36,912 bases of DNA from Acidobacteriota bacterium (lineage in GTDB: Bacteria > Acidobacteriota > Terriglobia > UBA7540): the NCBI GenBank assembly GCA_004298155.1, contig SCRD01000014.1, forward strand, positions 1 to 36,912, given 5' to 3'. This document shows, one piece after another, positions 1 through 12,768 of this stretch (its first letter is position 1; every line of letters begins with the position of its first letter). A program made the position numbers and the translations under genes. The notes below the pieces were generated by a model. It worked only from the letters and a program-made list of their open reading frames with translations, had not been told where the DNA came from and made no database searches.

Positions 1-2
1 AA

Positions 3-629
3 TCCTACACCATCGGCGACACCATCGTTTTAAGCCGCGGCCTGATCGACGTGCTGCCGGACGAAGCCAGCCTGGCCATGGTGCTGGCGCACGAACTGGC
101 CCATATCAAGCTGGGTGATACCGTTGACACCAAGTACGCCTTTTACGACCGTATGATGATCAGCGATGAACAGCTCCTTAATATGTTCGACTTCGCCCAC
201 AGGGCCCAGTCCGAGGAAGCCGCCGACGGGGAAGCAGTCAAACTGCTTCAAAACTCTCCCTATAAAGACAAGCTGGGTAAAGCAGGATTATTCCTGAAAG
301 CCCTGGATGAAATCGCCCCGGTAACTCCCAGCCTGTTCGGCGCACACCTGGGTTCCCGCCTGATTGATAAGCACCAGCAACTGAGGATGGCTCAACTGCT
401 GCAGGGCGCCCCGGCGCTCGATCCTAAATCGATTGACCAGATCGCCGCGCTGCCGCTCGGCGCGCGCGTCAGGGTGGACGCCTGGGACGACAGCATCCGC
501 ATGATGAAATCCAAGCCGGTCAACCTGGTCTCTGCCAAAGACAAGATGCCCTTCGAGGTGACGCCGCTGATCCCCTACCTCACCCGGTATAACGACAAGC
601 CCGAGCAGGAGCAACAGGCGCAGCGGTAG
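3..629 (+). CDS. M48-family zinc metallopeptidase, C-terminal part (5' end outside window)
   Basis: The frame is open from the first bases of the window to a TAG at 627-629, so the N-terminus is missing; a GTG at 51 is internal, because the residues before it (TIGDTIVLSRGLIDVLPDE) are typical of the segment just ahead of the M48 active site. The zinc-binding HELAH lies at about 90-104, and SEEAADGEAVKLL further on supplies the EExxD-type third ligand. M48 enzymes cleave proteins or peptides at the membrane or in the periplasm. Where this one acts cannot be told without its N-terminus. The tail is rich in Gln/Glu and looks disordered. It converges on the next gene across a GC-rich hairpin. The family assignment is good; the substrate is unknown. 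Confidence 0.85.
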   Translation, partial: SYTIGDTIVLSRGLIDVLPDEASLAMVLAHELAHIKLGDTVDTKYAFYDRMMISDEQLLNMFDFAHRAQSEEAADGEAVKLLQNSPYKDKLGKAGLFLKALDEIAPVTPSLFGAHLGSRLIDKHQQLRMAQLLQGAPALDPKSIDQIAALPLGARVRVDAWDDSIRMMKSKPVNLVSAKDKMPFEVTPLIPYLTRYNDKPEQEQQAQR

Positions 630-669
630 TTTCTACCGGCCCTGCTCGATCGTGGGAACGCGCTCCAAC

Positions 670-696
670 GCCGGCGGTTGCTAACCAGCCGCCGGC
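670..696. terminator. GC-rich hairpin between convergent genes
   Basis: GCCGGCGG (670-677) pairs with CCGCCGGC (689-696) around an 11-base loop. The hairpin sits 41 bp past the peptidase stop and about 60 bp from the stop of the opposing membrane-protein gene, where a bidirectional terminator would be expected. There is no clear T-tract on either side, so intrinsic termination is only likely. Confidence 0.45.
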
Positions 697-754
697 TGCT
701 CCACAAGACCAGAAACCTTCCGTGACCTTTCTGAACACTCTGCACTCGAAATTT

Positions 755-2497
755 CTACCTGCTCGGCGGGCCGAATTGCTTTTGTGCGCTAGGCACATCG
801 CCTGCTTCCTCAGGGTAGGGCTCCAATTTCGGCGGATGGCTGTCGGCATCCACCAGCCACACGTTGCGCCCTTTGAAATAATTAATAAGTTCCTGGTTCT
901 TCGCCGGGCCCATATCATGCGCCCAGATAACTTTTGCTGAGTCCAGGTCAGCACGATTGTAAACCCAGTCGTCAAACCCATAATCGCTCTCTGGGTTGTG
1001 GTGGACAATAGCGAGCTGGGCGCCAGCGTATCCCTTGAGTTTGTGAAGAACATCCGCCCGATTGTCATTTGAGGCCGTCAGGTAACACCAGTCAGGTATT
1101 CTGTTGTCCGCCCAGGCAGGTGCGGCCACTCGGAGAACCAGCAGCAGGATGCAGATGGAAGGAATGGCTCTGGCGATGAACAGGCCGGAGGACTTCCCGC
1201 GCCATTCGAATGATTGGACCCGGCGAATGGCAATCAGTACCAGGGCAAGAAGGGCGCATGTGGCTGGCGACGTGTAATGAGGCATGTACCAGATTGGAAG
1301 CAGGTTCGCAAGGATGACCGCCGCGGAAACTGCCGCCAGGAGCCGTGTGTTTGCACTCAATTTCCTCCAGGAAAATCCAACCGGGAGAATTCCTGCTGCA
1401 AATAAAAGTGGAAAAATGAAGACGGCCCCGAAATAAAAACTTCCCATGATGCCAAGCCTTGTCAGCGTCACCGCAACCAGGCCTGCAAACGTTTGTGTCG
1501 GCTGGTAAAATCCGTCCAGAATCTCCAGATAGACACGCCGGATGTGGGGATAGTTGTAGGCAGGAAAGGGCTTGAGCGGTTGCCAGGGGAAAATGGGTAT
1601 CGGATTGTAGGTATGCTCGAAGATAACGTAGGGGGTCTTGAAAGGGCTGCCCGTAGTGCGCCGGAAATAATAGCCCATGCCAACCAATGTGAGGGCCAGC
1701 ACTGCCACCAGTGGGACCATAGCGCCCTTCAGAGCACGGCCCAGTTCAGGCGGCTTCAGTTTCCACAGCCAGACCAGCAACGCCACGGCGACCGGAATGC
1801 AGAAAAACAGGCCTTCAAAGGGACGGCTGGTGGCCAAAATGGCAAAACCGGCGCCCATCAGCAAAGCGTTCCGTACACGATGCCCCCGCTTCAGGCGCGG
1901 CAACGCCCCCAAAACCAACGCTCCGCCAAACGCCGTCACAGCTCCGCCCCAGTAACTGTTGGCCCAGTAGTTGAATGTTCCAAAGCGAATCAGGGCCAGG
2001 AAGCCGCCCAGCAGCGCCCAGCGCTCGCCCACCCAGGCCTGCAACATCCAGGTGATGGCTGCGCACATCAGGCCGATGCTCAACCAGACGCCCCAGAACG
2101 GATGTCCCATCAAAGCCTGACCCAAAGCCATGAACATTCCCTGCGCCGGCCAGTACTTGGACGTATAAGTCGGATGCCAGAGGATGGCGGAGTTTTCGAA
2201 ATGCATCCACATGGGGCTGGTGGGATTAGTAAGCCGTCCGTGGGCAAAGGTGTCCGATAGCAGCAGGTAGCCAAACTCATCGCTGACACCCGGCACAGGA
2301 ACCGGAAGGATGGGAAGCAGCGCCGCCCGCAACGACATTGATGAGAGCCCAACGGTAATGATCGAAAGACCGCGCTGCCGCGCCAGATTGCCGAAGGTCC
2401 GCTCCAAGGCTGCAAACCAGCGAGAGCCAAGGCTTGGAACCGTAAACGCTATTGCCAGCGCAACAACAACCAGCCCGGCTTCAATTGCAAGAAACAT
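755..2497 (-). CDS. polytopic membrane protein, GT-C-like glycosyltransferase ('gene B')
   Basis: This 580-residue protein has about ten hydrophobic segments. A loop after the second of them carries an acidic pair (SDEFGYLLLSDTF, about residue 72) followed by Trp/His-rich sequence. This layout is that of GT-C enzymes such as GT39/ArnT, which move sugars from polyprenyl-phosphate donors on the outer face of the inner membrane. A soluble tail of about 90 residues follows the last membrane segment. The ATG at 2497 has an AGGAG 6-7 bases upstream. It is the only complete copy of this gene here: pieces of relatives lie at 5285-5330, 11080-11169 and 12361-12445. Enzymatic activity is inferred from architecture; acceptor and donor are unknown. 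Confidence 0.7.
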   Translation of the reverse strand: MFLAIEAGLVVVALAIAFTVPSLGSRWFAALERTFGNLARQRGLSIITVGLSSMSLRAALLPILPVPVPGVSDEFGYLLLSDTFAHGRLTNPTSPMWMHFENSAILWHPTYTSKYWPAQGMFMALGQALMGHPFWGVWLSIGLMCAAITWMLQAWVGERWALLGGFLALIRFGTFNYWANSYWGGAVTAFGGALVLGALPRLKRGHRVRNALLMGAGFAILATSRPFEGLFFCIPVAVALLVWLWKLKPPELGRALKGAMVPLVAVLALTLVGMGYYFRRTTGSPFKTPYVIFEHTYNPIPIFPWQPLKPFPAYNYPHIRRVYLEILDGFYQPTQTFAGLVAVTLTRLGIMGSFYFGAVFIFPLLFAAGILPVGFSWRKLSANTRLLAAVSAAVILANLLPIWYMPHYTSPATCALLALVLIAIRRVQSFEWRGKSSGLFIARAIPSICILLLVLRVAAPAWADNRIPDWCYLTASNDNRADVLHKLKGYAGAQLAIVHHNPESDYGFDDWVYNRADLDSAKVIWAHDMGPAKNQELINYFKGRNVWLVDADSHPPKLEPYPEEAGDVPSAQKQFGPPSR

Positions 2498-2860
2498 CCA
2501 TAGCTCCTGTCATCTGGAGTATCCAGCCGTCTAATCCGTCGAGTTAAAGATTGCCGTCACTCTCCGGGACCATTTTACGGATGTCCTCCGTGGCGATTGC
2601 TGCGCTCGGATTCGTCAAATGATTATAAAGGACGTTCATCTCGTCACGGCAAGCAACTTTCCAGCCGTGCCTGGCAACAAGCATCGCAGCCAGCGGAGCG
2701 CCAGACGGCATCCTGCATGAGCCGATATGATATTTCTGCAGAAGAAATAACGTCTCATTTTGGGGGCAATAAATGTGGGCAGAGCCAGACAGAACGCCTC
2801 CCGGCTTATAGACGTCCGGCCTGCCGATCCGGAGAAAATATTGCTCACCCGATTGGCACA
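2455..2860. repeat. left copy of a diverged direct repeat flanking the plus-strand cassette
   Basis: This stretch aligns with 5285-5693 at a constant offset of 2833 bp and no indel between about 2477 and 2826. The start of gene B (2497 against 5330) and the stop of gene A (2544 against 5377) coincide exactly. Identity is roughly three quarters by eye. The repeat covers the last ~100 codons of gene A, the 46-bp A-B spacer and the first ~15 codons of gene B. Confidence 0.8.
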
Positions 2861-2861
2861 A
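2544..2861 (-). pseudogene. C-terminal remnant of a gene A paralogue
   Basis: About 100 codons open to a TAA stop match the C-terminus of the intact gene at 5377-6990. Shared pieces include YxPGGVL, KYHIxSCxMPSxAPL, MLxAxxGWKVAxRD and TNPxAxIxTEDIR, all in the same order and spacing. Everything encoding the membrane part is absent. Upstream of about 2880 the similarity fades into the leader of the plus-strand cassette. Substitutions are conservative and the frame is uninterrupted, which suggests the copy diverged as a working gene before it was truncated. I see no ribosome-binding site for the fragment, so it is probably not expressed alone. Confidence 0.8.
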
Positions 2862-2896
2862 CTGCCTGCAAAGACATCATATTGAGGCCCACGGCG

Positions 2897-2925
2897 TTCC
2901 TGGCCTGCACGCCGCATGCTATACT
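2897..2925 (+). promoter_or_regulatory. possible promoter of the GT2/flippase cassette
   Basis: An extended -10 (TGC-TATACT, hexamer 2920-2925) lies 17 bp after a weak -35 (TTCCTG, 2897-2902). It would start transcription near 2932, about 100 bases before the GT2 start codon. It rests on sequence match alone. Confidence 0.35.
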
Positions 2926-3030
2926 ACTCCGCCGTGAGGCCTTCCGGCCCTGCGGGTGCGCCGGTCACGATGTTCTGGCACACCTTTTTTCACAGCGTGG
3001 CCCACCCGAAAGCGGGCTTTGGTATACAGG

Positions 3031-4179
3031 ATGGATGTGGAACTCAGCATCATCATGCCCTGCCTGAATGAGGCCCAGACCCTCGCAAGCTGCATCCGCA
3101 AAGCCCAGGATTATCTCCAGCGCTCCGGCGTGAGTGGCGAGATCGTGGTTGGCGACAACGGTTCAACCGACGGCTCCCAGGAAATTGCAAGGAACCTTGG
3201 GGCGCGCGTAGTTGACATTCCCGTCCGCGGTTACGGCGCGGCCCTTTGCGGGGCCGCCATTGCCGCGCGCGGACGCTACTGCATCATGGGCGATTCCGAT
3301 GACAGCTACGACTTTGGAAACCTCGACGGCTTTGTCGAAAAGCTCCGCGAAGGCAGCGATCTTGTAATGGGCAACCGCTTCAGAGGCGGCATCAAGAAGG
3401 GGGCCATGCCGTGGAAGCACCGTTACATTGGCACGCCCATCCTTTCAGCCATCGGAAGAAATTTTTTCCACTCGAATGTAGGAGATTTCAACTGCGGCCT
3501 GCGGGGGTTCTCAAAGGACGCCTTCCGCCGCATGGACCTGAGGACGACGGGGATGGAATTTGCCAGCGAGATGGTGGTGAAAGCCAGCCTGCTGCGCATG
3601 AAGATCAACGAAGTGCCCACAATGCTCTCGCCCGACGGGCGCAACCGTCCGCCCCACCTGAGGTCATGGCGCGACGGCTGGCGGCATCTGCGCTTTCTCC
3701 TCATGTACAGCCCGCGCTGGCTCTTCCTCTATCCCGGGGCGTTAATGTTCCTGGTGGGGCTGGCGGTGGCTGTCATCCTGCTTCCGGGACCGATTGTCAT
3801 CAACGGCATCACCTTTGACGTCCACACTCTTCTCTATGCCTTCATTGCCACGCTGCTCGGCTTTCAGTTCGTCGCCTTCGCCGTCTTCACCAAAGTTTTC
3901 GCCATCACTGAGGGACTGCTTCCGCACGACCCCCGCCTCGCCAGCATCTTTCGGTGGGTCACACTGGAAACAGGACTGGTGGTCGGCGGCCTGTTGATCG
4001 CCTTCGGCATCGGCGGCTCCATTTTTGCCGTGTCGCACTGGGCCGGCGAGAGCTTTGGGCCCCTTGACCCCGACCGCATGCTGCGCATTGTCATGCCCGC
4101 GGTCTTCTCCGTTGCCCTCGGCGTCCAGATCGTCTGCAGCAGCTTCTTCCTCAGCATCCTGGGCCTGAGGCGGCACTGA
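3031..4179 (+). CDS. GT2 family glycosyltransferase, dolichol-phosphate-mannose-synthase-like, with membrane tail
   Basis: The protein has 382 residues. The N-terminal half is a GT-A fold: LSIIMPCLNEAQTL at the start, GDNGSTDGS around residue 46, and MGDSDDSYDF as the DxD-type metal/nucleotide-sugar site. The motif DFNCGLRGF follows, as in DPM1/GtrB-like transferases that make polyprenyl-phosphate sugars. From about residue 240 there are four hydrophobic segments, so the enzyme is membrane-anchored with its catalytic domain in the cytoplasm. The ATG at 3031 is chosen because the family motif starts five residues in; a longer in-frame start at 2956 would add a basic, unrelated leader. The flippase-like gene overlaps it by one base. 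A role in charging lipid carriers for the GT-C enzymes nearby is inferred. Confidence 0.85.
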   Translation: MDVELSIIMPCLNEAQTLASCIRKAQDYLQRSGVSGEIVVGDNGSTDGSQEIARNLGARVVDIPVRGYGAALCGAAIAARGRYCIMGDSDDSYDFGNLDGFVEKLREGSDLVMGNRFRGGIKKGAMPWKHRYIGTPILSAIGRNFFHSNVGDFNCGLRGFSKDAFRRMDLRTTGMEFASEMVVKASLLRMKINEVPTMLSPDGRNRPPHLRSWRDGWRHLRFLLMYSPRWLFLYPGALMFLVGLAVAVILLPGPIVINGITFDVHTLLYAFIATLLGFQFVAFAVFTKVFAITEGLLPHDPRLASIFRWVTLETGLVVGGLLIAFGIGGSIFAVSHWAGESFGPLDPDRMLRIVMPAVFSVALGVQIVCSSFFLSILGLRRH

Positions 4180-5168
4180 TGACTCGCCGGCGCTCGTTCC
4201 TGCTGGTGCTTTCCTTCCCCCTCAGCGCGCTCCTGATCGCCATCCTGATCAAGGTCGGCAAGATCGACCTGCATGGCACATTGCAGCAATTGCACGCCGT
4301 CCGCGGTCCCGCATTCGCCACCCTGGTTATATTGACCGGCGTGCACGTGTACCTCTCCAACCTGAAATGGCGGAAAATAGATGCGGCTCTGCGGCGGTCC
4401 TCTGATTCCGCCCTTTCAGGCGCGGCGTCGTTCGCCTTCACAAGCGCAGGTGTTGCATTAGGCCAGGTTTTGCCGGTCCAGGTCAGCATGTCGGCTGCCC
4501 GCACATTTGGAACCTATTTTTACGGAAGTCCGTTGAAGCGCGGAACCGCCGGCACGCTCTTCGAGCAGAGTTTTGATGTATTAATTGTCGCTTTCCTGGC
4601 CGTGGCCTCCGCGGTTACATGGCTTTTCGGGTGCGGAGGCATGATCTGGACAGCCTCCGCAATTGTGATGGGGATTTTCGCCCTTCTGGCGGTGGGCCCG
4701 TCGATTCGAACCATTCGGCGGTTGACCTCATACACTTCAACCAGGAAAGCGCCACAAAATCGCATCCTGAAAAGACTTTCTGATCTCGAGCAGTCGGGAT
4801 TTCTGGATGTTGGATTGGCCCGCCAGTTAATGCTGCTTTCCGCCGCGCGTTATGTCATTCAGGTAATCATGGCAGGCCAGGTGGCCAAAGCAGTGGGCGC
4901 TCACATTCCGCTGTGGCACCTGGCCGCCACGATACCCTTTGTGACCATGGCATACGCACTTTCGATAACTCCGGGCGGCATCGGAGTCAATGAAATCGGG
5001 TACGCGGTTGTGCTGCACCTGTTTGGAACACCAGTTGCCATAGGCGCGCCATGGGCGCTCGAAAACCGGGTCCTGGTTGCCACGTCGTGCTTTGTGGTGG
5101 CCGCATGTGGGCTGGTTTTCTTCTTTATCGGGAAGGTCATTACACAACGCAGGCACGAAGCAATGTAG
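4179..5168 (+). CDS. flippase-like membrane protein (lysylphosphatidylglycerol synthase TM-region family, UPF0104)
   Basis: This protein has 329 residues with about eight hydrophobic segments. The signature SITPGGIGVNEIGY near residue 265 is the conserved 'PGGxGxxE' of the LPG-synthase membrane domain/AglD-like family. Members move lipid-linked substrates across, or act with glycosyltransferases at, the inner membrane. No soluble aminoacyl-transfer domain is present, so it is not an MprF synthase. Its ATG overlaps the stop of the GT2 gene (TGATG, 4177-4181), implying translational coupling. The pair probably works together on a lipid-linked sugar. The substrate is not deducible. Confidence 0.8.
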   Translation: MTRRRSFLLVLSFPLSALLIAILIKVGKIDLHGTLQQLHAVRGPAFATLVILTGVHVYLSNLKWRKIDAALRRSSDSALSGAASFAFTSAGVALGQVLPVQVSMSAARTFGTYFYGSPLKRGTAGTLFEQSFDVLIVAFLAVASAVTWLFGCGGMIWTASAIVMGIFALLAVGPSIRTIRRLTSYTSTRKAPQNRILKRLSDLEQSGFLDVGLARQLMLLSAARYVIQVIMAGQVAKAVGAHIPLWHLAATIPFVTMAYALSITPGGIGVNEIGYAVVLHLFGTPVAIGAPWALENRVLVATSCFVVAACGLVFFFIGKVITQRRHEAM

Positions 5169-5202
5169 GACAATCTGATCCATCAAAGGCTGAAGCGTTT
5201 GT

Positions 5203-5285
5203 TATGTCCGTCAGGAGAGAAATACCGATCTATCGCCCTCTGTGGCCATGCCTTTGTACAACGCCGGGAAATCCATCCGCGCCGC
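5203..5285 (+). pseudogene. fragment of the N-terminus of another GT2 gene
   Basis: The plus strand at about 5242-5285 encodes VAMPLYNAGKSIRAA, which fits the opening beta strand and nucleotide-binding loop of GT2 glycosyltransferases. An ATG at 5204 begins MSVRREIPI in a different frame, so at least one frameshift separates them. The similarity stops where homology to gene B begins on the other strand. This looks like a third gene of the plus-strand cassette, cut off at a recombination join. The piece is short, so the call is tentative. Confidence 0.4.
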
Positions 5286-5330
5286 GCCAGTGCAGAGGAT
5301 GAACAGGCCGGCTTCAATTGCAGGAAACAT
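5285..5330 (-). pseudogene. N-terminal remnant of a gene B paralogue
   Basis: Read on the minus strand from 5330 this gives MFPAIEAGLFIL, against MFLAIEAGLVVV at the start of intact gene B. The 46-bp leader with its ribosome-binding-site region is also matched. After about 15 codons the frame shifts and similarity is lost. It lies directly downstream of intact gene A, in the position gene B holds relative to the gene A remnant at 2544-2861. Confidence 0.7.
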
Positions 5331-5693
5331 CCAAAGCCTCTGTCATCTGGCAGATTCAGCCTTCTACCCAGCCGCGTTAACGATTACCGTCTTTCTTCGG
5401 GGCCGGTGTTCGGATGTCTTCCGTCGAGATTCCTGCGTTCGGGTTCGTCACACGCCCAATGAGGACGCTTATCTGGTCACGATAAGCTACTTTCCAGCCG
5501 GGCATGGCAGCAAGCATCGTAACCAGCGGAGCGTTGGACGGCATCAGGCATGAATCAATATGATATTTCCGCAGCAGAAACATCGTCTCACTCTGCGGGT
5601 AATAAATGTGGAGATAGTCAAGCAGAACGCCGCCCGGCTCATAGATATCCGCCCTGCCGTCGATGAAGACCTTCTGGCCGAGCGTTTCAATCA
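5285..5693. repeat. right copy of the diverged direct repeat
   Basis: This is the partner of 2455-2860 in the same orientation. Here the gene A part (5377 onward) belongs to a complete gene, and the gene B part is only a stub. The two copies enclose about 2.4 kb containing the GT2 and flippase-like genes on the plus strand. Confidence 0.8.
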
Positions 5694-6990
5694 GGTAGCC
5701 TCCCCAGTCGTCAAAGTTGAGCAGGCGCCCATTCACAGGATGTTCGCGAAGGTAGCGGACCGCGCCCGTGGGGTTCCACAATTCCACGCCCGCCTGCAGC
5801 CTGGCCCGTGACGGAAACAGGAATACGATCGCCGCGCAGGCCGCAGCCATCACCGCGGCGTTCAGCGCGTAACGTTCCCTTCCCAGGCCCGCCTTGCCCA
5901 GCCACTCCGCCAGCACCAGGGCGAGAAGCGGAGCAAACACCGGAACGAACATCAGCATGAACCGGGCATGAAGAACAGTTTCAGCAGCGGCGAAAAGCAG
6001 CAGCGCTAATTCCGCAACCTGAAGCTTCCGGCGGGTGATCAACTGCCCCGTCACAAACAGCAGCAAAAGAACAAGAAACCATTGCCCGTAGAAACGGCTG
6101 AAATCCAGCATATGCCATTCCGGAACCACTCGAGGGATCATTGGCATGAAGACGGTCATCTGCAGCGGATAGGCCGCCAGGTGCGTGCCATAGGGAGTAA
6201 TGGTGCAGGCCACCAGGCAAAGCAGGAAGATCATGGCCAGGCGCCTGCGGTCGTTCGGCTTCCAGGCGGTTGACTCCAGGTGTTCAAGCCGAAATTCCCG
6301 CAAGCCGGCCAGCCAATACACGCCGATGGCCACGAAACCCAGCACAAACGTCCCGTGCGTGTTGACCCACACCATGAAGAGGGGAGGGAGGATCCAGAGG
6401 GCCCGCCGATGCCCCTGGCGAAACCTCTCCAGGCTGATCAGCGTCACCACCAGAAATGCGGAGCCCAATAGCTGCGGGCGCATGCTGAATGGCAAAGAAG
6501 CCAGCGGCAGCAGCAGCGCGCAGGCCAGAAAAGCGGCTTTCACGCTTCCGCTTCTCAGCCAGGCGTAGTAATAAAGCAGCAGCAGAATTCCGCCCGATAA
6601 GGCAGCCAGCAGAACCATGAGGGCGTGCATCCTTCCCAACCCCCAGACAACCGCGATGAGGACTTCCCCCAGCCACTGGTCAGCAATCCATGGATTGCCA
6701 TAGGCCGTGAACGAATAGAAATCCTGCGTCGGCCAGGCGTGGTTCGCTAAGATCCACTTGCCCGCCGCCAGGTGCCACCACATGTCGCCTTCAAAGCAGT
6801 AAGCGGAATAGACATGCTGGTGCAACGAGGCATTCATCAGGTTCCAATACCGGTCCAGGCAAGCACCGGCCACCAGCAAAATGCCCAGCAAAACAGGAAA
6901 AGAAAATATTCTGCGAGCAAGCGTGGAAGCCAATGGCTGCCGGATTGTTTCAGTGGAATTCGCGGTCTGCATGGTCTGCGATCGCGGCAT
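5377..6990 (-). CDS. polytopic membrane protein of GT-C-like architecture ('gene A')
   Basis: The protein has 537 residues with about ten hydrophobic segments. An early loop has GDMWWHLAAGKWIL then PTQDFYSFTAYGNPW and ADQWLGE, an acidic/Trp-rich pattern I recognise from uncharacterised GT-C-like proteins of glycan clusters. A soluble tail of about 110 residues includes FIDGRADIYEPGGVLLDYLH and KYHIDSCLMPS. An alternative ATG lies at 6972; neither start has a clear ribosome-binding site. The tail is duplicated as the remnant at 2544-2861. It probably transfers or helps transfer sugars on the periplasmic side; that is inference. Confidence 0.65.
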   Translation of the reverse strand: MPRSQTMQTANSTETIRQPLASTLARRIFSFPVLLGILLVAGACLDRYWNLMNASLHQHVYSAYCFEGDMWWHLAAGKWILANHAWPTQDFYSFTAYGNPWIADQWLGEVLIAVVWGLGRMHALMVLLAALSGGILLLLYYYAWLRSGSVKAAFLACALLLPLASLPFSMRPQLLGSAFLVVTLISLERFRQGHRRALWILPPLFMVWVNTHGTFVLGFVAIGVYWLAGLREFRLEHLESTAWKPNDRRRLAMIFLLCLVACTITPYGTHLAAYPLQMTVFMPMIPRVVPEWHMLDFSRFYGQWFLVLLLLFVTGQLITRRKLQVAELALLLFAAAETVLHARFMLMFVPVFAPLLALVLAEWLGKAGLGRERYALNAAVMAAACAAIVFLFPSRARLQAGVELWNPTGAVRYLREHPVNGRLLNFDDWGGYLIETLGQKVFIDGRADIYEPGGVLLDYLHIYYPQSETMFLLRKYHIDSCLMPSNAPLVTMLAAMPGWKVAYRDQISVLIGRVTNPNAGISTEDIRTPAPKKDGNR

Positions 6991-7016
6991 TCAGGAAAGG
7001 AGACAATGCCCTTCTA

Positions 7017-7036
7017 ATTATATAACGGCCGTTATA
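7017..7036 (-). promoter_or_regulatory. perfect palindrome overlapping a TATAAT box upstream of gene A
   Basis: TATAACGGCCGTTATA (7021-7036) is a perfect 16-bp palindrome. On the minus strand a consensus -10, TATAAT, occupies 7017-7022 and overlaps its edge. No good -35 is visible at the proper distance. The layout suits a repressor or activator site controlling gene A, whose start codon is at 6990. Confidence 0.4.
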
Positions 7037-7072
7037 CCGGGCGATAGCCGCCGCACCCCGAAAGGTCCCAAT

Positions 7073-9184
7073 CTATTGCCCATCATGGCCCGTTGAGACA
7101 GGGGAAACAGACGTGTGTTCCTCGGATGCCCTGCGGTTTGCACTGCGGCTACGAAACAACCATAACCCGTACACCATGAGCGTGACCAACGCGATGATGC
7201 CCGATGGAAGCAAAAGGGCATTGTGATAGACCAGCCGGACGTGGCGCGTGCCCGGCGGGACCTCGACCCGAACCAACCCGTCTGCTGAATTGCCCACGGG
7301 ACTGCAGCTCTCCCCCAAACAAGTTTCAAGCCCGTGGTTGGCGACAAAGGCAAAAACCAATTCCCGGCCCGGCCATTGGCTCAGGTCCACGTCAATGGAG
7401 TTGACGTGCTCAACCCAGTGGATGCCCGCAGCCGCCCCGGCATCCGCGCTCGCATCACCCCAACGCACGCGAGGCAAAGCGGACGGGTCTTTCCATAATG
7501 TCCAGCCCTGCTTTACTGCTTGCACCTGGTACCCTGTGCCTTCAAGTTCTTTGGAAATATCGGACCGGCCAGGATCCACCAGAACATACCTGACACTCCA
7601 CAATTTCAGGTGGCTCAGCAACGATGGGTCCACCGTCCCCATATAATTGCCGCCATAAATCTCCCATTCCGTCAAAGACCTCCCGACAAGCAGCGTTGCA
7701 TTCAGGCGCGGTACTAACGGCTCGTAGCCAAGCAGATTGTCAAGCCCCCATATTTCAGCGTAGTCGCGTTCCACAAACTCTTTGGAGACAGTACGCACCG
7801 AGCCCTGGCTGATGACGAGATACCGCCCATCCTTCAGAACTTCCTGCCATGGCGACTTCAAAGGCACTTGGTATTTCCGCACGCGCCAGGCGTGGCCAGG
7901 CAGTAAGCAGAAAACCACAATCCAATTGACCAGAAAAACGGCAACGGCAATCCTCTGCCATCGCCTGCTGAAGAGCGTCAGCACTAGTGCTGCAACAAGG
8001 CATTGGAAAAAACCGGCGAAGTAAATCAGTTTGAACGGCCAGCGGAACCGGTTCAGGACCGGCAAGTGGTAAATCAACGGGCCGATTGCATTCCAGCACC
8101 AGAGCAATGCGATCACAAAGCAAACGCCACACGCAAAGAGCCACGGCCTGCTACCGGGCCGTTTCTTCCATAACATCCCGGCACCCAGCGGCAGGAGCGC
8201 CGGAAGGTAACCGATGTAGGAAACGTACGGAATCGAGCGGGCGATCACGATATGCTTCGGCAGCTCAACTTTCATAAACACAAACAATTGTCCGAAAAGC
8301 CAGAAAATCGGACTGAGGCTGAGCACGGAAAATTCTGCGTACGACAAGTGCGTTGAACGGGTATATGATCTTCCGGCTTCCATCCACACCGGTAGCAGAA
8401 AGGGCAGTCCCAGCAGGGCCGTGGGCACGTCCAACAAAAGGTAACCCAGGCCGCGAGCCTTCCAGCCTTGCCGCCGGATCGCCAGCGCGTGTCCCAAAGC
8501 AAACAGATGTTCGAAGATCATTGCCAGAACGAAGAACTGCGATTGCCCGCCGAATAGCAACGCCAGGCGAAACAACATCAGCCAGCCCGCGCGTGCAGCG
8601 GACGGCTTTTCGATATAGCGTAGTGATGCCCACAACATCCACGGGAACCACGCGCAGAGCATCAGGGCAATCGGCCACATCCGCCCCGCCCAAACGAAAA
8701 ACCCCGTGAACGCGCTAAGTGCACCAAATGCCGCCGCCATGTCTGCTGCCCCCATATATCGCAACAAAACATACCCTCCGGCCACTGCAATCAGCGCGTG
8801 CATAAAAGCCATCACATCAAGCATGGCAAACGGATGCCCCCAGATCGACTCGCTCAAAAACATGGCAAGATACTGAGGAACATAAAAGACCCCTGTTTGC
8901 CCCACCGCCATATGCGGCACGCCCGCATATATGTGGAAGTCGTAGAGCGGCAGCTTGCAGGCCAGAAGGCTGCGCCAATTGTGAACGTAGTAGGGCAGGA
9001 AAGCCTCCAAACCATCATCCTGTAGAAAGTAGAAAGGCGACCGCAGCTCGAGCGCCAAAAAAAGGAAGGATGCCACCGCCAACACCGCCAACAGGACACG
9101 GCTGGATAAGGCATGGGCCCCGGAGGTCCTGCGGTGCTGCATGTTCGGAGATTCTTTCGGAAGAGGATGGCTAAGGCTGTTCAT
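7073..9184 (-). CDS. large polytopic membrane protein, YfhO-like/GT-C superfamily
   Basis: About 703 residues from the ATG at 9184. Ten or more hydrophobic segments fill the first ~480 residues, with the loop YFLQDDGLEAFLPYYVHN near the start resembling the acidic first loop of YfhO and other GT-C proteins. A soluble region of about 170 residues follows, then one more membrane segment (LLLPSGIIALVTLMVYGLWLF) and a short Ser/Arg-rich tail. YfhO-type proteins take part in glycosylating envelope polymers; the substrate here is unknown. Start choice: the frame runs open up to 9265, but that leader looks uncoded. The ATG at 9184 overlaps the stop of a short upstream reading frame; another ATG is at 9142. 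Confidence 0.65.
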   Translation of the reverse strand: MNSLSHPLPKESPNMQHRRTSGAHALSSRVLLAVLAVASFLFLALELRSPFYFLQDDGLEAFLPYYVHNWRSLLACKLPLYDFHIYAGVPHMAVGQTGVFYVPQYLAMFLSESIWGHPFAMLDVMAFMHALIAVAGGYVLLRYMGAADMAAAFGALSAFTGFFVWAGRMWPIALMLCAWFPWMLWASLRYIEKPSAARAGWLMLFRLALLFGGQSQFFVLAMIFEHLFALGHALAIRRQGWKARGLGYLLLDVPTALLGLPFLLPVWMEAGRSYTRSTHLSYAEFSVLSLSPIFWLFGQLFVFMKVELPKHIVIARSIPYVSYIGYLPALLPLGAGMLWKKRPGSRPWLFACGVCFVIALLWCWNAIGPLIYHLPVLNRFRWPFKLIYFAGFFQCLVAALVLTLFSRRWQRIAVAVFLVNWIVVFCLLPGHAWRVRKYQVPLKSPWQEVLKDGRYLVISQGSVRTVSKEFVERDYAEIWGLDNLLGYEPLVPRLNATLLVGRSLTEWEIYGGNYMGTVDPSLLSHLKLWSVRYVLVDPGRSDISKELEGTGYQVQAVKQGWTLWKDPSALPRVRWGDASADAGAAAGIHWVEHVNSIDVDLSQWPGRELVFAFVANHGLETCLGESCSPVGNSADGLVRVEVPPGTRHVRLVYHNALLLPSGIIALVTLMVYGLWLFRSRSANRRASEEHTSVSPVSTGHDGQ

Positions 9185-9329
9185 CGGGTGAAACGGGGTC
9201 CCCTGTCGCTGGCATGGGCCGCCAGTGCGATAGCCGAATGTCCCACACTTTCCTACCCATGTCAATCAACTGCGGGAGCCGCTGGTTGTCATCGATCACG
9301 ATGATCGGGTGAGCGTTCCCGCCGCACAT
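9171..9329 (-). CDS. short reading frame, 52 residues, possible decayed-gene tail
   Basis: From ATG 9329 to TAG 9171 the frame encodes a protein-like sequence (HPIIVIDDNQRLPQL, then GRKVWDIRL). A second frame just upstream (about 9330-9410) gives LPGEGLVIPRAFPTV, which also looks protein-like and could join it by one frameshift. The stop overlaps the ATG of the YfhO-like gene at 9184 by 14 bases. I do not recognise a family. It could be a small coupled protein or the 3' end of a broken gene. Confidence 0.25.
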   Translation of the reverse strand: MCGGNAHPIIVIDDNQRLPQLIDMGRKVWDIRLSHWRPMPATGDPVSPDEQP

Positions 9330-9417: not shown

Positions 9418-10965
9418 CTACTTCTTTATAACTGTGTAAACGCCCGTATAATAGCCCCCGCCAAATTGATTGCCGATTTGCTTTACGAGACGCGCATGGG
9501 CCTGGACAAACGCCCACACTTTTTTGTCTGGATAAGGGCCCCTTGCAAGGACATAATCAGCGCCCGCCATATAGAGCATTTCATCCCTGGGCCTGTCCAG
9601 ATTAAAGTGCGGCATAAATTCGCGCAATGACAAGCCTTCCCGTTCACGCAGGACAAAATAGGGATCAGGGATGATGGAAATCAGGACAGTAGAACCTTTT
9701 GGCACTGCGTCGCTCACTTGCCGGCCCCAGGCGAGGTAATCCGTATCCTGCGGATATAGCACGTTCGACTCGTAGTCAATTGACCTGGTCTTGACCAGAC
9801 TGTATTGCGCCATCCAGAGCGCAAGAAACACAGCCGCCCATCCGGCAAGTTTCCTGAAGGCCCGGTCATCCCACCACGAGCAGCCTTGCGCTGTGAGCGT
9901 TGCAAGCTGCACCAGCCCGATCATCGTCAGCGGGGCGATGTAGAGCGGGTACCAAATCTCGCCGCCCCAGAGCATGACGGCAAACATCGCAAGCTGGACA
10001 AGAAGCAGCAAACGCGTGAATTTGCTCCGTCGCGCGAAGAGAATTAATCCAATCAAACCGCCAACCCAGGCAACAAGGACAAGCACGCACTTTCCGCCAT
10101 ACTGTTCCATATCCATTAACAGGAAAGAAACCAGATGGTCCAGGGCCAGCGGGTGCCTGCCTGATTTTCCGGAAATCTGGGCGCTGAACTGGAGGATGAA
10201 CTCCCGCCAGTGCAAACCAACGTAGCAAGCTCCCGGAACAAGGGACACCGCCATCCCGCACAAAACGGGCAGCAACAGTGTCCTGCGTTTGTTTGGCACA
10301 GCCAAGGCAAGCCCAACCAGAAAGACAGCGGAAACTCCTGTACTCACATGCAACATCAGAACTGCCAGCCCAAAAACCAGGCCGGCAAGGAAAAGCCTTA
10401 TCGGCATTTTGCACGTTTCGGAGTCAAGAAAAGGGGCTGCAAGCCAAAAGGAAAGCAAAAGAAGGGCCAGCTCCAGCATGTCAGCTCTGGCCACTAATGC
10501 CCCGCGAAGAAAGACGGTATCAAGAGCGAGCAATGACACGGGCAGCAATGAAGTCCAGCGGCCCAGGCCAGCCCGGCGGGCAACTCCATAAGTCAGGAAA
10601 AGCACGGCGACCGCTGCTGTGAGGGATCCCAACCTCGCCTGGACAATGCCTATCCCGCAAAGGGAGAAAACCACCCACGAATAAATGACATAACCCAGTG
10701 GCACAAGGAAGCTGTGATGCACAGCGCCAGGGAAAAAGCTGTCAAGCAGAGTGAATCCAAAAACTCCGTGATAAATCCGGTTGATTGCCGGATTGGTGTA
10801 AAACGGCTCATCCGGCCAGATGGGCGGGTATTTCAGCAGCAGGGCCTTCGCGTACCAGCCAAAAACGCCGAGTGACGCGATCAGCGTAACAACGGCCCCG
10901 CACTTTCCCAGTAGATTGAGGAAGGGTGAACGGTCGCACGCGCCTGATGTCACAGGAACTCTCAA
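9418..10965 (-). CDS. GT39/ArnT-like membrane glycosyltransferase
   Basis: This 515-residue protein has about eleven hydrophobic segments. The first periplasmic loop carries WPDEPFYTNPAINRIYHG, with the Asp-Glu pair expected for the catalytic acidic site of GT39/GT83 enzymes. The motif VARADMLELALLLLSFW later on is the family's RxDxL-like region. Such enzymes transfer mannose, aminoarabinose or similar sugars from polyprenyl carriers in the periplasm. The start is taken as TTG 10965 with no evident ribosome-binding site; GTG 10953 is an alternative. The acceptor is unknown. Confidence 0.7.
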   Translation of the reverse strand: MRVPVTSGACDRSPFLNLLGKCGAVVTLIASLGVFGWYAKALLLKYPPIWPDEPFYTNPAINRIYHGVFGFTLLDSFFPGAVHHSFLVPLGYVIYSWVVFSLCGIGIVQARLGSLTAAVAVLFLTYGVARRAGLGRWTSLLPVSLLALDTVFLRGALVARADMLELALLLLSFWLAAPFLDSETCKMPIRLFLAGLVFGLAVLMLHVSTGVSAVFLVGLALAVPNKRRTLLLPVLCGMAVSLVPGACYVGLHWREFILQFSAQISGKSGRHPLALDHLVSFLLMDMEQYGGKCVLVLVAWVGGLIGLILFARRSKFTRLLLLVQLAMFAVMLWGGEIWYPLYIAPLTMIGLVQLATLTAQGCSWWDDRAFRKLAGWAAVFLALWMAQYSLVKTRSIDYESNVLYPQDTDYLAWGRQVSDAVPKGSTVLISIIPDPYFVLREREGLSLREFMPHFNLDRPRDEMLYMAGADYVLARGPYPDKKVWAFVQAHARLVKQIGNQFGGGYYTGVYTVIKK

Positions 10966-11079: not shown

Positions 11080-11169
11080 CCGGATGGCAAACGCCGCTTG
11101 CCGTGAATCGTCCGGTCGAGCGCAAGAACAGCCAGTCCGGCTTCGATTTTAAGAAAGATTCGCGCACAG
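11080..11169 (-). pseudogene. second N-terminal remnant of a gene B paralogue
   Basis: From 11169 the minus strand reads (I)FLKIEAGLAVLALD before running into a TGA after 30 codons, against MFLAIEAGLVVVALA at the start of intact gene B. At the DNA level about three quarters of the first 58 bases match. The start codon has become ATC. It begins 6 bp past the stop of the methyltransferase gene and lacks the spacer and ribosome-binding site shared by the other two copies. Confidence 0.65.
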
Positions 11170-11174
11170 TGCCG

Positions 11175-12008
11175 TCAGGAATGCCGCCGGTCGCCTGGCC
11201 ATGACACCTCAGCAGGCCTACTCTCGAGCGATTGGACCGCGTCTGGACCGCAAACCGACGGCCCGTGGCCGGCAACAGGTTGCTTCCCGGATAGCATGAC
11301 GATGGAAGTTCCCCAGGGCAAACGGACGAACTTCATCAAGAACGCTTCGGTCCGCAGCATCCAGGTAAACAAGCTGTTCAGCAGGGGCGGCAGCATCACG
11401 TGCGAAGCCTTGGGTGACATTGCGTCCCTGGGGAATAGACCACGGAAGAGCCGGTACAGCAGGATGGGGAAAAACACAAAGAAAACTGCATAGCTCCGAA
11501 AAGCAACGTCATACCCCGTCCGGTTGAGCTTCATGTGCAACTCGGATGCTACATACCGTCTGCGATGCATCAGGGCCTCATCATGCTCGCTCCACAGGAA
11601 CCGGTACGCGGGGACGGTGAGCAGGAGCAATCCTCCCGGGCGCAGGACGCGGTTGAATTCTTCAAGGGCGCGCACATCGTCATCCAGGTGTTCCAACACA
11701 TCGAAAGCTGTGAGCAAGTCCACGGAACCGTCAGCCAGCGGCAGGAAATGTCCGTCAACGCAGCCTACAGCCAGGCCACGGGAGGCGGCGATGGACAAAG
11801 CAGTCAATGAACGGTCAAGCCCCGCCACGCAGTCGGCATACAGGGCCAGTATCGCCATGTTGCGGCCTGTCCCACAGCCAACGTCAACCGCGACACGCTT
11901 TCGGGATGCAAACCGGGACAAAATGCCGTCGATGATCGTGCGGCGGCCCACAAACCACCAATAGGTATCTTCCAGTCCGTGTTCGGCTTCTGTGAGGGAG
12001 CCCTTCAT
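11175..12008 (-). CDS. class I SAM-dependent methyltransferase
   Basis: The ATG at 12008 gives 277 residues. Motif I is VAVDVGCGTGRNMAIL around residue 40, followed by AGLDRS (acidic end of strand 2), FLPLADGSVDLLTAFDVLEH and RPGGLLLLTVPAY, a complete Methyltransf_11-type core. The opening EDTYWWFVGRR is common in methyltransferases of polysaccharide clusters. A hydrophobic stretch near residue 185 (YAVFFVFFPILLYRLF) suggests membrane association, so a lipid-linked sugar or polyprenyl substrate is plausible. A GGACGG precedes the start by about 9 bases. Gene B fragments lie on both sides of it. Confidence 0.8.
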   Translation of the reverse strand: MKGSLTEAEHGLEDTYWWFVGRRTIIDGILSRFASRKRVAVDVGCGTGRNMAILALYADCVAGLDRSLTALSIAASRGLAVGCVDGHFLPLADGSVDLLTAFDVLEHLDDDVRALEEFNRVLRPGGLLLLTVPAYRFLWSEHDEALMHRRRYVASELHMKLNRTGYDVAFRSYAVFFVFFPILLYRLFRGLFPRDAMSPKASHVMLPPLLNSLFTWMLRTEAFLMKFVRLPWGTSIVMLSGKQPVAGHGPSVCGPDAVQSLESRPAEVSWPGDRRHS

Positions 12009-12768
12009 CGTATCAAACCGTCCGCGTCCCACCTTGGAACGCCTGCGTGGCCGTTTGTGATTCCTCTGAACCTGTTAGGTTCGTCATCCATATTGGTGTT
12101 GTTATACACCAGCAATAACCACCAAGTAAAATACGCCCTACAGCGTGCCACGCGCGTCCCCACAAGCTCAATAGACCTGAAGTTCTAGACCGGAGGTCCG
12201 GCGTCCTCAATATCTGTTGGCCAGTCAAAAGCTTAGAATCACCGGTAATGGAAGTCCACAGCAAAGTAACAGTATGCCCGGAGCCACTTCATGGTTTATA
12301 TGCCGGATTTTATATAGTGTATCTGGAAGTGGCCTGCTGGCTCCGGAAGTGGGCTGAGAATCTGGCAGAGTTCGAGCTTCGACGAGTCATCATCCGCATC
12401 GGCCAGCCAGACGCGCCGCCATTAAAAATGGTCGATGAGGCATGAAGTTGGCCGCAAAAGAGCGGCTTCCAGAGGCCCGAAAGACGAGACCGGAAAAACC
12501 ACCACTGAACAACCAGACGGAGACGAAGCCGGATGGGCCGGCTGCAGCGGTTCCGGGCAGGCTCGTCAGACAATCCATGTAGCCTCCTGCCACAAGATTG
12601 CCAGCAGGCCGGGGAGCGCGGCAACCTGCTACACTCAGGCGCCTGGTTGTGCGCCTGCGCGGGCCGCCGGGCGCTGCTTCCGCTACGGCTATCATCAGGG
12701 CAGCAAAGGGCCCCCGAGACCAAAGCCGACTTGACCGTCGCAGCGTGGCGGCTGCATAAGGCAACAGC
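12009..12768. other. 760-bp intergenic stretch with only a gene fragment and a small inverted repeat
   Basis: I see no intact gene. It contains the gene B C-terminal fragment at 12361-12445 and an inverted repeat TGGTGT-(6)-ACACCA at 12094-12111 upstream of the methyltransferase. Several long open frames from 12390 to 12821 are Arg/Gly/Ala-rich with no recognisable domain and are probably GC-driven. Confidence 0.5.
12361..12445 (-). pseudogene. C-terminal remnant of a gene B paralogue
   Basis: On the minus strand this gives LIDHF-stop-WRRVWLADADDDSSKLE, against LINYFKGRNVWLVDADSHPPKLE near the end of intact gene B. The in-frame stop shows it is dead. Weaker similarity may run up to about 12490. 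It lies upstream of the methyltransferase gene while an N-terminal piece lies downstream, so the order is permuted relative to a single interrupted gene B. Confidence 0.6.

What the first reader, a model, noticed from the sequence alone, without database searches (positions are those of the whole stretch)
2455..5693. Plus-strand GT2/flippase cassette enclosed by two direct copies of one gene junction
The A-B junction occurs twice, in the same orientation and at a constant 2833-bp offset. The right copy is intact gene A plus a stub of gene B; the left copy is the tail of gene A plus intact gene B. The enclosed 2.4 kb is on the opposite strand. A single crossover between a circular molecule carrying an internal A-B fragment and the chromosome gives exactly this arrangement; so does replacement of the middle of an A-B-A-B tandem. 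Divergence (about a quarter of bases by eye) argues for an old event or recombination between relatives.
Basis: partly seen in the sequence, partly recalled or inferred. Interest (0 to 1): 0.75.

Follow-up and report, generated by a model that had tools for sequence, protein, structure and literature searches.

The report
Old gene insertion flanked by junction duplicates
In this acidobacterium a pair of sugar-transfer and membrane genes sits between an intact and a broken copy of the same gene boundary, most likely the scar of an old insertion that spared both neighbouring genes; the scar type is ordinary, but it lies in an unusually restless stretch of the genome.

Summary
On the minus strand: intact A, a 9-codon B stub, the opposite-strand FLP-GT2 pair, an A tail, intact B. 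The A-B junction is a direct repeat (2471-2826 and 5304-5659) with no detectable homology beyond. The tail is the sister of the intact A beside it, excluding the nearest relative's A. Its differences from A are spread over codon positions, so it looks dead for most of its existence. Its silent divergence (0.32-0.39) is below that of neighbouring genes against two congeners (0.68-2.04), so the event follows their split. This favours one insertion that duplicated about 360 bp of target and spared both genes; it speaks against long-lived A-B-A-B copies and an already diverged donor. Two results complicate this. A 78-79% GT2 homologue lies in the same island of another genus, same orientation, beside B, with no A there, so GT2 may be an old resident; only FLP looks alien. 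And an older 41-bp B stub follows the methyltransferase gene (11119-11159), where congener G001 has methyltransferase-B directly. The island has high turnover. Circle integration, array decay and template switching are not resolved.

The parts
5377..6990 (-). gene A, intact, 537 aa membrane protein (by sequence look), no Pfam or NCBIfam match
   Evidence: 68-69% homologue in congener G002 beside M730
5304..5330 (-). B stub: first 9 codons of B including the start codon, end of the right repeat copy
   Evidence: 5304-5331 is 26 of 28 identical with 2471-2498; no significant homology beyond
5304..5659 (-). right copy of the A-B junction repeat
5169..5303 (.). 135-bp segment between the FLP stop and the B stub; no convincing homology found
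4179..5168 (+). FLP, 329 aa, LPG_synthase_TM / flippase-like, start overlaps the GT2 stop
   Evidence: PF03706 1.6e-18; only in the own genome of 61, weak matches in 4 other genomes of 396
3031..4179 (+). GT2, 382 aa from the ATG at 3031, polyprenyl-phosphate sugar synthase-like glycosyltransferase
   Evidence: PF00535 4.7e-23; TIGR04182 AglJ 6e-35, below that model's cut-off; homologue 78-79% in G026
2847..3030 (.). segment between the A tail and the GT2 start codon; no homology with the GT2-B spacer of G026
2544..2846 (-). A tail: last about 100 codons of a second A, taken as a pseudogene
   Evidence: sister of A with 99/97 support; codon-position counts and dN/dS
2471..2826 (-). left copy of the A-B junction repeat
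755..2497 (-). gene B, intact, 580 aa membrane protein (by sequence look), no Pfam or NCBIfam match
   Evidence: 66% homologue in G001
11119..11159 (-). second, apparently older B-start stub (41 bp, reads IFLKIEAGLAVLA) just after the methyltransferase gene
   Evidence: 34 of 41 identical with the start of B; in one alignment with the methyltransferase-B junction of G001
7076..9265 (-). M730, upstream of A (called start at 9265 is doubtful); found in G002 and G026, not in G001 and G014
9418..10965 (-). M515; found in the own genome only of 5 searched
11175..12032 (-). MT, methyltransferase, towards the right edge of the island
   Evidence: PF08241; dS 0.77 with G001
3..629 (+). M48 peptidase-like gene (runs off the contig start), left edge of the island
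   Evidence: PF01435; beside the island in G001, G002 and G014

Best explanation
The structure is the fossil of one insertion-duplication at the A-B junction. Before it, the strand read M730-A-B-M48. A segment now represented by FLP and GT2 entered there together with a copy of the last 100 or so codons of A, the 46-bp spacer and the first 9 codons of B. The simplest way is a single homologous crossover between the chromosomal junction and a circle of about 2.8 kb (the 2833-bp offset would be the circle length) carrying FLP, GT2 and that fragment of about 360 bp. The outcome spares both resident genes: A keeps its whole frame on one side, B keeps its whole frame and about 350 bp of upstream DNA on the other. 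While the two copies were identical, recombination could remove the segment again; at 75-78% identity it should now be locked in. Shown: the repeat and its ends, tail and A as sister copies, a codon pattern of neutral decay, the age relative to congeners. Inferred: the circle, the single crossover, the plain M730-A-B-M48 precursor, the locking-in. The pair probably works as an operon making and moving a polyprenyl-phosphate-linked sugar (inference from the families).
For: Sharp B-side end and constant offset. Tail and A sisters, 99/97, with G002's A outside; tail branch 0.59 against 0.041, though the tail fills only 18% of columns. Differences by codon position 21/29/25 of 101 each. Tail-specific changes 30 against A-specific 13, two-sided P 0.014, 18 unassigned. 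dN/dS about 0.8, bootstrap 0.40-1.67, against 0.30 for A and G002's A in the same region. dS 0.32-0.39 (bootstrap upper bound 0.52) against 0.69 (M48), 0.77 (MT) and 1.12 (B) for G001 and 0.84-2.04 for the whole genes compared with G002; the M48 fragment of G002 gives 0.68. Related topologies at the locus: B stub after MT where G001 has MT-B; 303-bp copy of the M48 3' end beside A in G002; B copies on both sides of the GT2 pair in G026.
Against: GT2 has a 78-79% homologue in the same island, same orientation, next to a B in G026, so GT2 may have been resident before the duplication. No close relative with M730-A-B and no pair was found. No indel interrupts the 282 aligned coding bases of the tail although neutral decay should bring some. 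The tail-specific changes are not even but heavy in position 2 (7/17/6, P 0.025), which neutrality does not predict. The contrast of all tail-A differences with functional A genes is only P 0.064. The dN/dS interval is wide and includes moderate constraint. FLP's relatives in the phylum sample are remote, and no circle or source was found.
Confidence: 0.45

Rival explanations
1. Decay of an array. A-B was tandemly duplicated (A-B-A-B, or B copies on both sides of a resident GT2 operon as in G026), and the middle, from B codon 9 to A codon about 437, was replaced by or reduced around the FLP-GT2 pair.
For: Arrays exist in the family: G018 carries A-B twice on one contig, G026 carries M730-B1-B2-(GT2',GT2 inverted)-B3. 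A paralogues stand in tandem elsewhere in the own genome. The older B stub after MT suggests that B copies are lost here.
Against: Tail divergence shows no sign of a long functional coexistence. It needs a duplication and then a replacement, or two losses that both stop at the pair. The G018 A and B copies are on long branches far from these.
Confidence: 0.33
2. Replication template switching: a fork copying A and the start of B jumped to the FLP-GT2 segment elsewhere, copied it inverted, and returned about 360-390 bp upstream of where it had left. Same product without a circle.
For: Would explain opposite orientation, sharp ends and the target duplication in one step (inference).
Against: Needs a source copy in the same cell; no second FLP and no second copy of either pair edge was found in the own genome. 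Microhomology at the ends was not examined.
Confidence: 0.14
3. Site-specific integration at the start of B, with the B start acting like an attachment site.
For: Two B stubs, both cut within the first 14 codons of 580. The first 9 codons are among the better conserved bins of B in all seven comparisons.
Against: They are the best conserved bin only against G002 (1 of 49); elsewhere ranks are 4 to 16 of 62-64. No recombinase among the two enclosed genes. The repeat runs some 330 bp beyond the B start.
Confidence: 0.04
4. Assembly artefact: reads from two strains chained into a false repeat.
For: The window is a whole 36.9-kb contig of a 29-contig draft.
Against: At 22-25% divergence the copies should not be confused by an assembler (inference), and the tail's codon pattern is unlike that of a strain variant of a live gene.
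Confidence: 0.03

Closest known systems
Campbell-type (single-crossover) integration / insertion-duplication, as used in mutagenesis (recalled from general knowledge; PMC5440470 seen in a search listing only)
   Same: Insert flanked by direct copies of the homologous fragment, one side whole gene plus stub, other side tail plus whole gene
   Different: Natural and old, copies 22-25% apart, fragment spans a gene junction so that both genes stay whole; circle not seen
Deletion-coupled insertions and repeat-bounded indels of Haloquadratum walsbyi (PMC3119063, passages read)
   Same: Unrelated genes at one position of a conserved gene order; indels bounded by direct repeats
   Different: There the repeats are short (usually under 20 bp) and mostly explain deletions; here the larger repeat is about 360 bp, with a 41-bp stub as a second case
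Small-scale duplications and gene acquisition in the acidobacterium Solibacter usitatus Ellin6076 (PMC3174227, abstract and section list read)
   Same: Acidobacterial genome shaped by duplications and acquired genes without conserved order
   Different: That abstract reports genome-wide paralogues, not a dated junction duplication around an insert

Membership tests
Insertion-duplication (single-crossover integration) | Insert bounded by direct copies of one contiguous stretch, complementary truncations | tested here: met
Insertion-duplication (single-crossover integration) | Copies nearly identical at birth | tested here: inconclusive
   dN/dS 0.8 (0.40-1.67) and codon-position counts fit, interval wide
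Insertion-duplication (single-crossover integration) | Supporting feature: relative with the uninterrupted A-B junction | tested here: inconclusive
   Neither congener has it in the loci read: G002 has A without B, G001 B without A. By hit positions in 61 genomes, A then B on one strand occur in G018 (twice), G056 and one contig of G025, all remote
Insertion-duplication (single-crossover integration) | Circular donor carrying the junction fragment | not testable with these tools
   No donor found: FLP no match in 72,556 plasmid records at E 0.01; metagenome scan not available
Transposon or integrase-borne island | Recombinase gene, terminal repeats, or tRNA target | tested here: not met
   Enclosed genes are GT2 and FLP only. 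None of the 5 inverted repeats of 20 nt or more in 1-9000 bounds the pair; one weak one (20 nt, 80%) has arms at 2866-2885 and 5555-5574, the second inside A. No tRNA in the window
Tandem A-B-A-B remnant | Period of functional coexistence of both A copies | tested here: inconclusive
   Codon-position pattern speaks against a long one; a brief one cannot be excluded, dN/dS interval reaches 0.40
GT2 polyprenyl-phosphate sugar synthase | Match to a curated model above its cut-off | tested here: inconclusive
   PF00535 above cut-off (82.4 against 23.3); AglJ model TIGR04182 121 bits against a cut-off of 325
Flippase-like LPG_synthase_TM | Match to a curated model above its cut-off | tested here: met
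   PF03706 67.7 against 33.4; TIGR00374 25.1 is below its 43.2

The most novel reading that the evidence does not exclude
The stretch between MT/TBD and M48 is a recombination-driven exchange island in this family: gene blocks of polyprenyl-sugar membrane enzymes come and go as circles that cross over in resident genes, above all at or near the start of B, each passage leaving a datable gene-junction scar (A-B, MT-B, M48) without breaking a resident gene and without any mobile-element enzyme.
Probability: 0.15. Interest if true: 0.55.

Novelty: new member of a known kind. Interest (0 to 1): 0.33.

Why it matters
If right, it shows how a cell-envelope gene island can change content without transposases: insertion by homology that leaves both neighbours whole, with the scar's neutral decay serving as a clock. 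The scar type is known in principle; what is useful is a dated natural case with an older second scar in the same island and relatives that show other states of it.

Tried and rejected
Foreign composition: rejected, GC like the flanks. Donor already diverged, or long functional A-B-A-B: disfavoured by the codon-position pattern. Longer hidden homology past the repeat ends: none significant. A shared stretch after the two B stubs, expected if the whole M515-M730-A unit had been tandemly amplified: none, 284 of 300 shuffles as good. B start as an attachment site: weak. Pair edges elsewhere in the 61 genomes searched: none apart from B starts and one 36-base match in G045 (E 6.7e-4) that I take as chance. 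FLP near GT2 homologues: none among all reading frames of the loci then held nor in the 13 wider loci. FLP on plasmids: none. A and B in Pfam, NCBIfam and solved structures: none. Fold of B from its single sequence: mean pLDDT 44.8, unusable, so no fold search. Expected stop codons in the tail: about 1.2 under neutrality (for an assumed 45 changes), none seen, P about 0.31, so the open frame says little. Promoter and terminator scans near chance (2 against 1.2, 5 against 3.7); fold of 5165-5380 unremarkable (z 0.42). Literature: in the listings (titles and starts of abstracts; 10 of 49 and 8 of 136 papers were listed, searches found no paper) I saw none on this locus; only PMC3174227 (abstract and section list) and PMC3119063 (passages) were opened.
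Full report
What is there. The window is a whole contig (G000:C14) of a 5.2-Mb, 29-contig genome. On the minus strand the island reads TBD, MT, a B-start stub, M515, M730, A, a second B-start stub, then FLP and GT2 on the opposite strand, then an A tail, B, and M48 on the opposite strand. TBD is a 765-aa receptor-like protein named from its look, not from a search.

The repeat. 2471-2770 and 5304-5603 are 78% identical without gaps at offset 2833. Local alignment gives 357 columns, 2471-2826 with 5304-5659, score 328 against a shuffle maximum of 29 in 50. Identical bases per 30 from 2471 on are 28, 22, 21, 23, 23, 19, 26, 25, 24, 23, 23, 22, then 13 and below; in the four bins before 2471 they are 7-10. 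The copy thus contains about 280-300 bp of A, a 46-bp spacer (33 of 46 identical) and the first 9 codons of B.

Which copies are related. In the own genome A has four further paralogues in tandem on contig C12, 41-48% identical, and the tail. In a tree of 21 rows the tail is the sister of the intact A with support 99/97; G002's A joins this pair with 100/99, and the C12 paralogues are far away. The tail fills only 18% of the columns, so its branch length (0.59 against 0.041 for A) is rough.

Age and mode. Tail and A differ at 21, 29 and 25 of 101 sites in codon positions 1, 2 and 3. For 99 codons dN is 0.27 and dS 0.39; for the 94 most securely aligned codons 0.25 and 0.32, dN/dS bootstrap 0.40-1.67 and dS 0.17-0.52. 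A of the window against A of G002 gives 31, 22 and 45 differences and dN/dS 0.30 in the same region. Comparing the position patterns gives P 0.064 for all tail-A differences and 0.0013 for the tail-specific ones. With G002 as outgroup 30 changes fall on the tail (7/17/6), 13 on A (4/4/5), and 18 cannot be assigned. The tail-specific ones are heavy in position 2 (P 0.025 for evenness), which neutrality does not predict and which I leave unexplained. A neutral tail branch plus a constrained A branch explains the rest without earlier divergence. Neighbouring genes have dS 0.69 (M48), 0.77 (MT) and 1.12 (B) against G001, and 0.84 (M48), 1.43 (MT), 1.26 (A), 1.54 (TBD) and 2.04 (M730) against G002; the M48 fragment of G002 gives 0.68. 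So the duplication is younger than both splits, if these neighbours descended vertically.

The enclosed genes. GT2 is PF00535, nearest to curated models of polyprenyl- or dolichyl-phosphate sugar synthases but below their cut-offs. FLP is PF03706. GT2 and FLP overlap in TGATGA. FLP was found in 1 of 61 related genomes, its own, and in 5 of 396 of the phylum, the own one and four weak ones (E 1.8e-6 to 7.6e-4, 24-31% identity). Nine of 61 genomes, the own included, have a GT2 match at E below 1e-100. The best other one, 78-79%, lies in G026 in the order MT-M730-B1-B2-(GT2', GT2 inverted)-B3, that is in the syntenic island, the same orientation, and divergent from a B, with GT2' in the place of FLP and no A there; G026 has A paralogues on another contig. 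Its divergence (dN 0.15, dS 1.23) is like that of MT (0.18, 1.40) and TBD (0.15, 1.85) between the same genomes. GT2 may therefore have been at the locus before the duplication. This is the main result against a simple insertion of a two-gene foreign cassette.

A second scar. Window 11119-12021 aligns in one 905-column stretch with G001's MT, MT-B spacer and B start (79%). In the window only 41 bp of B follow: 34 of 41 identical with the start of B, with 0 of 300 shuffles as good. G001 has MT-B-M48; no match was found in it for M730, M515 or FLP, its best GT2 match is E 8e-14, and none of its four A matches is the sister of window A. So the 8.6 kb between this stub and B are absent from that place in this congener. 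Whether the window gained the block or G001 lost it by recombination between B copies is open: G002 and G026 have MT-M730, which favours loss in G001. After the two stubs the sequences are unrelated (284 of 300 shuffles as good), so they are not two copies of one larger unit.

Other states of the island. G002 has TBD-B-M48 on one contig and MT-M730-A on another, where a 303-bp copy of the M48 3' end (93.7% to the full M48 of G002) lies beside A. G014 has TBD-B-(2.1 kb)-M48. G018 has A-B twice on one contig. The B tree joins window B with G001's B (100/99) and leaves the three G026 copies unresolved. These are draft genomes, G002 with 3% estimated contamination, so the G002 case needs long reads.

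Mechanism. All models must make a target duplication of about 360 bp around an opposite-strand segment and leave both genes whole. One crossover with a circle does it in one step. Template switching does it too but needs a source copy, and no second FLP was found in the genome. Array decay needs a duplication and a replacement, and a short coexistence. I rank them 0.45, 0.14 and 0.33.

Function. A, B, M730 and M515 match no Pfam or NCBIfam model, profiles of A and B match no solved structure, and a single-sequence model of B is unusable. That they are membrane glycosyltransferases using polyprenyl-phosphate sugars is a guess from their neighbours.

Verdict. Real, old, and of a known kind; a natural example with a second, older scar in the same island. 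Interest 0.33.

Noticed in passing
11119-11159 (-): 41-bp remnant of the start of gene B directly after the methyltransferase gene, where congener G001 has an intact B; apparently an older scar of the same sort as the one given.
   Followed up: yes
9235-9265 (-); L070 11234-11264; L038 16726-16756; L077 10086-10116; L072 12689-12720: A shared promoter-like sequence, TTGACA followed by a block close to GGAAAGTGTGGGACATTCG, at M730 (window; overlaps its called start), upstream of MT (G002), B3 (G026) and B (G002), and at an unassigned gene (G001) (window and 25 loci scanned, up to 5 mismatches in 21). One further match, 10890 (-), lies inside M515 and lacks TTGACA. None upstream of window B, where the A tail lies.
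   Followed up: partly
L038 11622-11924 and L077 8033-8335: In G002 a 303-bp copy of the M48 3' end and downstream spacer (93.7%) lies beside the A-M730-MT block on a second contig: another junction duplication, or a strain mixture.
   Followed up: partly
4177-4182; L070 9981-9986: GT2 keeps the TGATGA stop-start overlap in window and G026, but the next gene differs (FLP in the window, another GT2 in G026): a partner swap at the overlap.
   Followed up: no
G000:C12:27928-34238 (L085): Four A paralogues in tandem elsewhere in the genome; runs of three to five also in G001, G014 and G026.
   Followed up: partly
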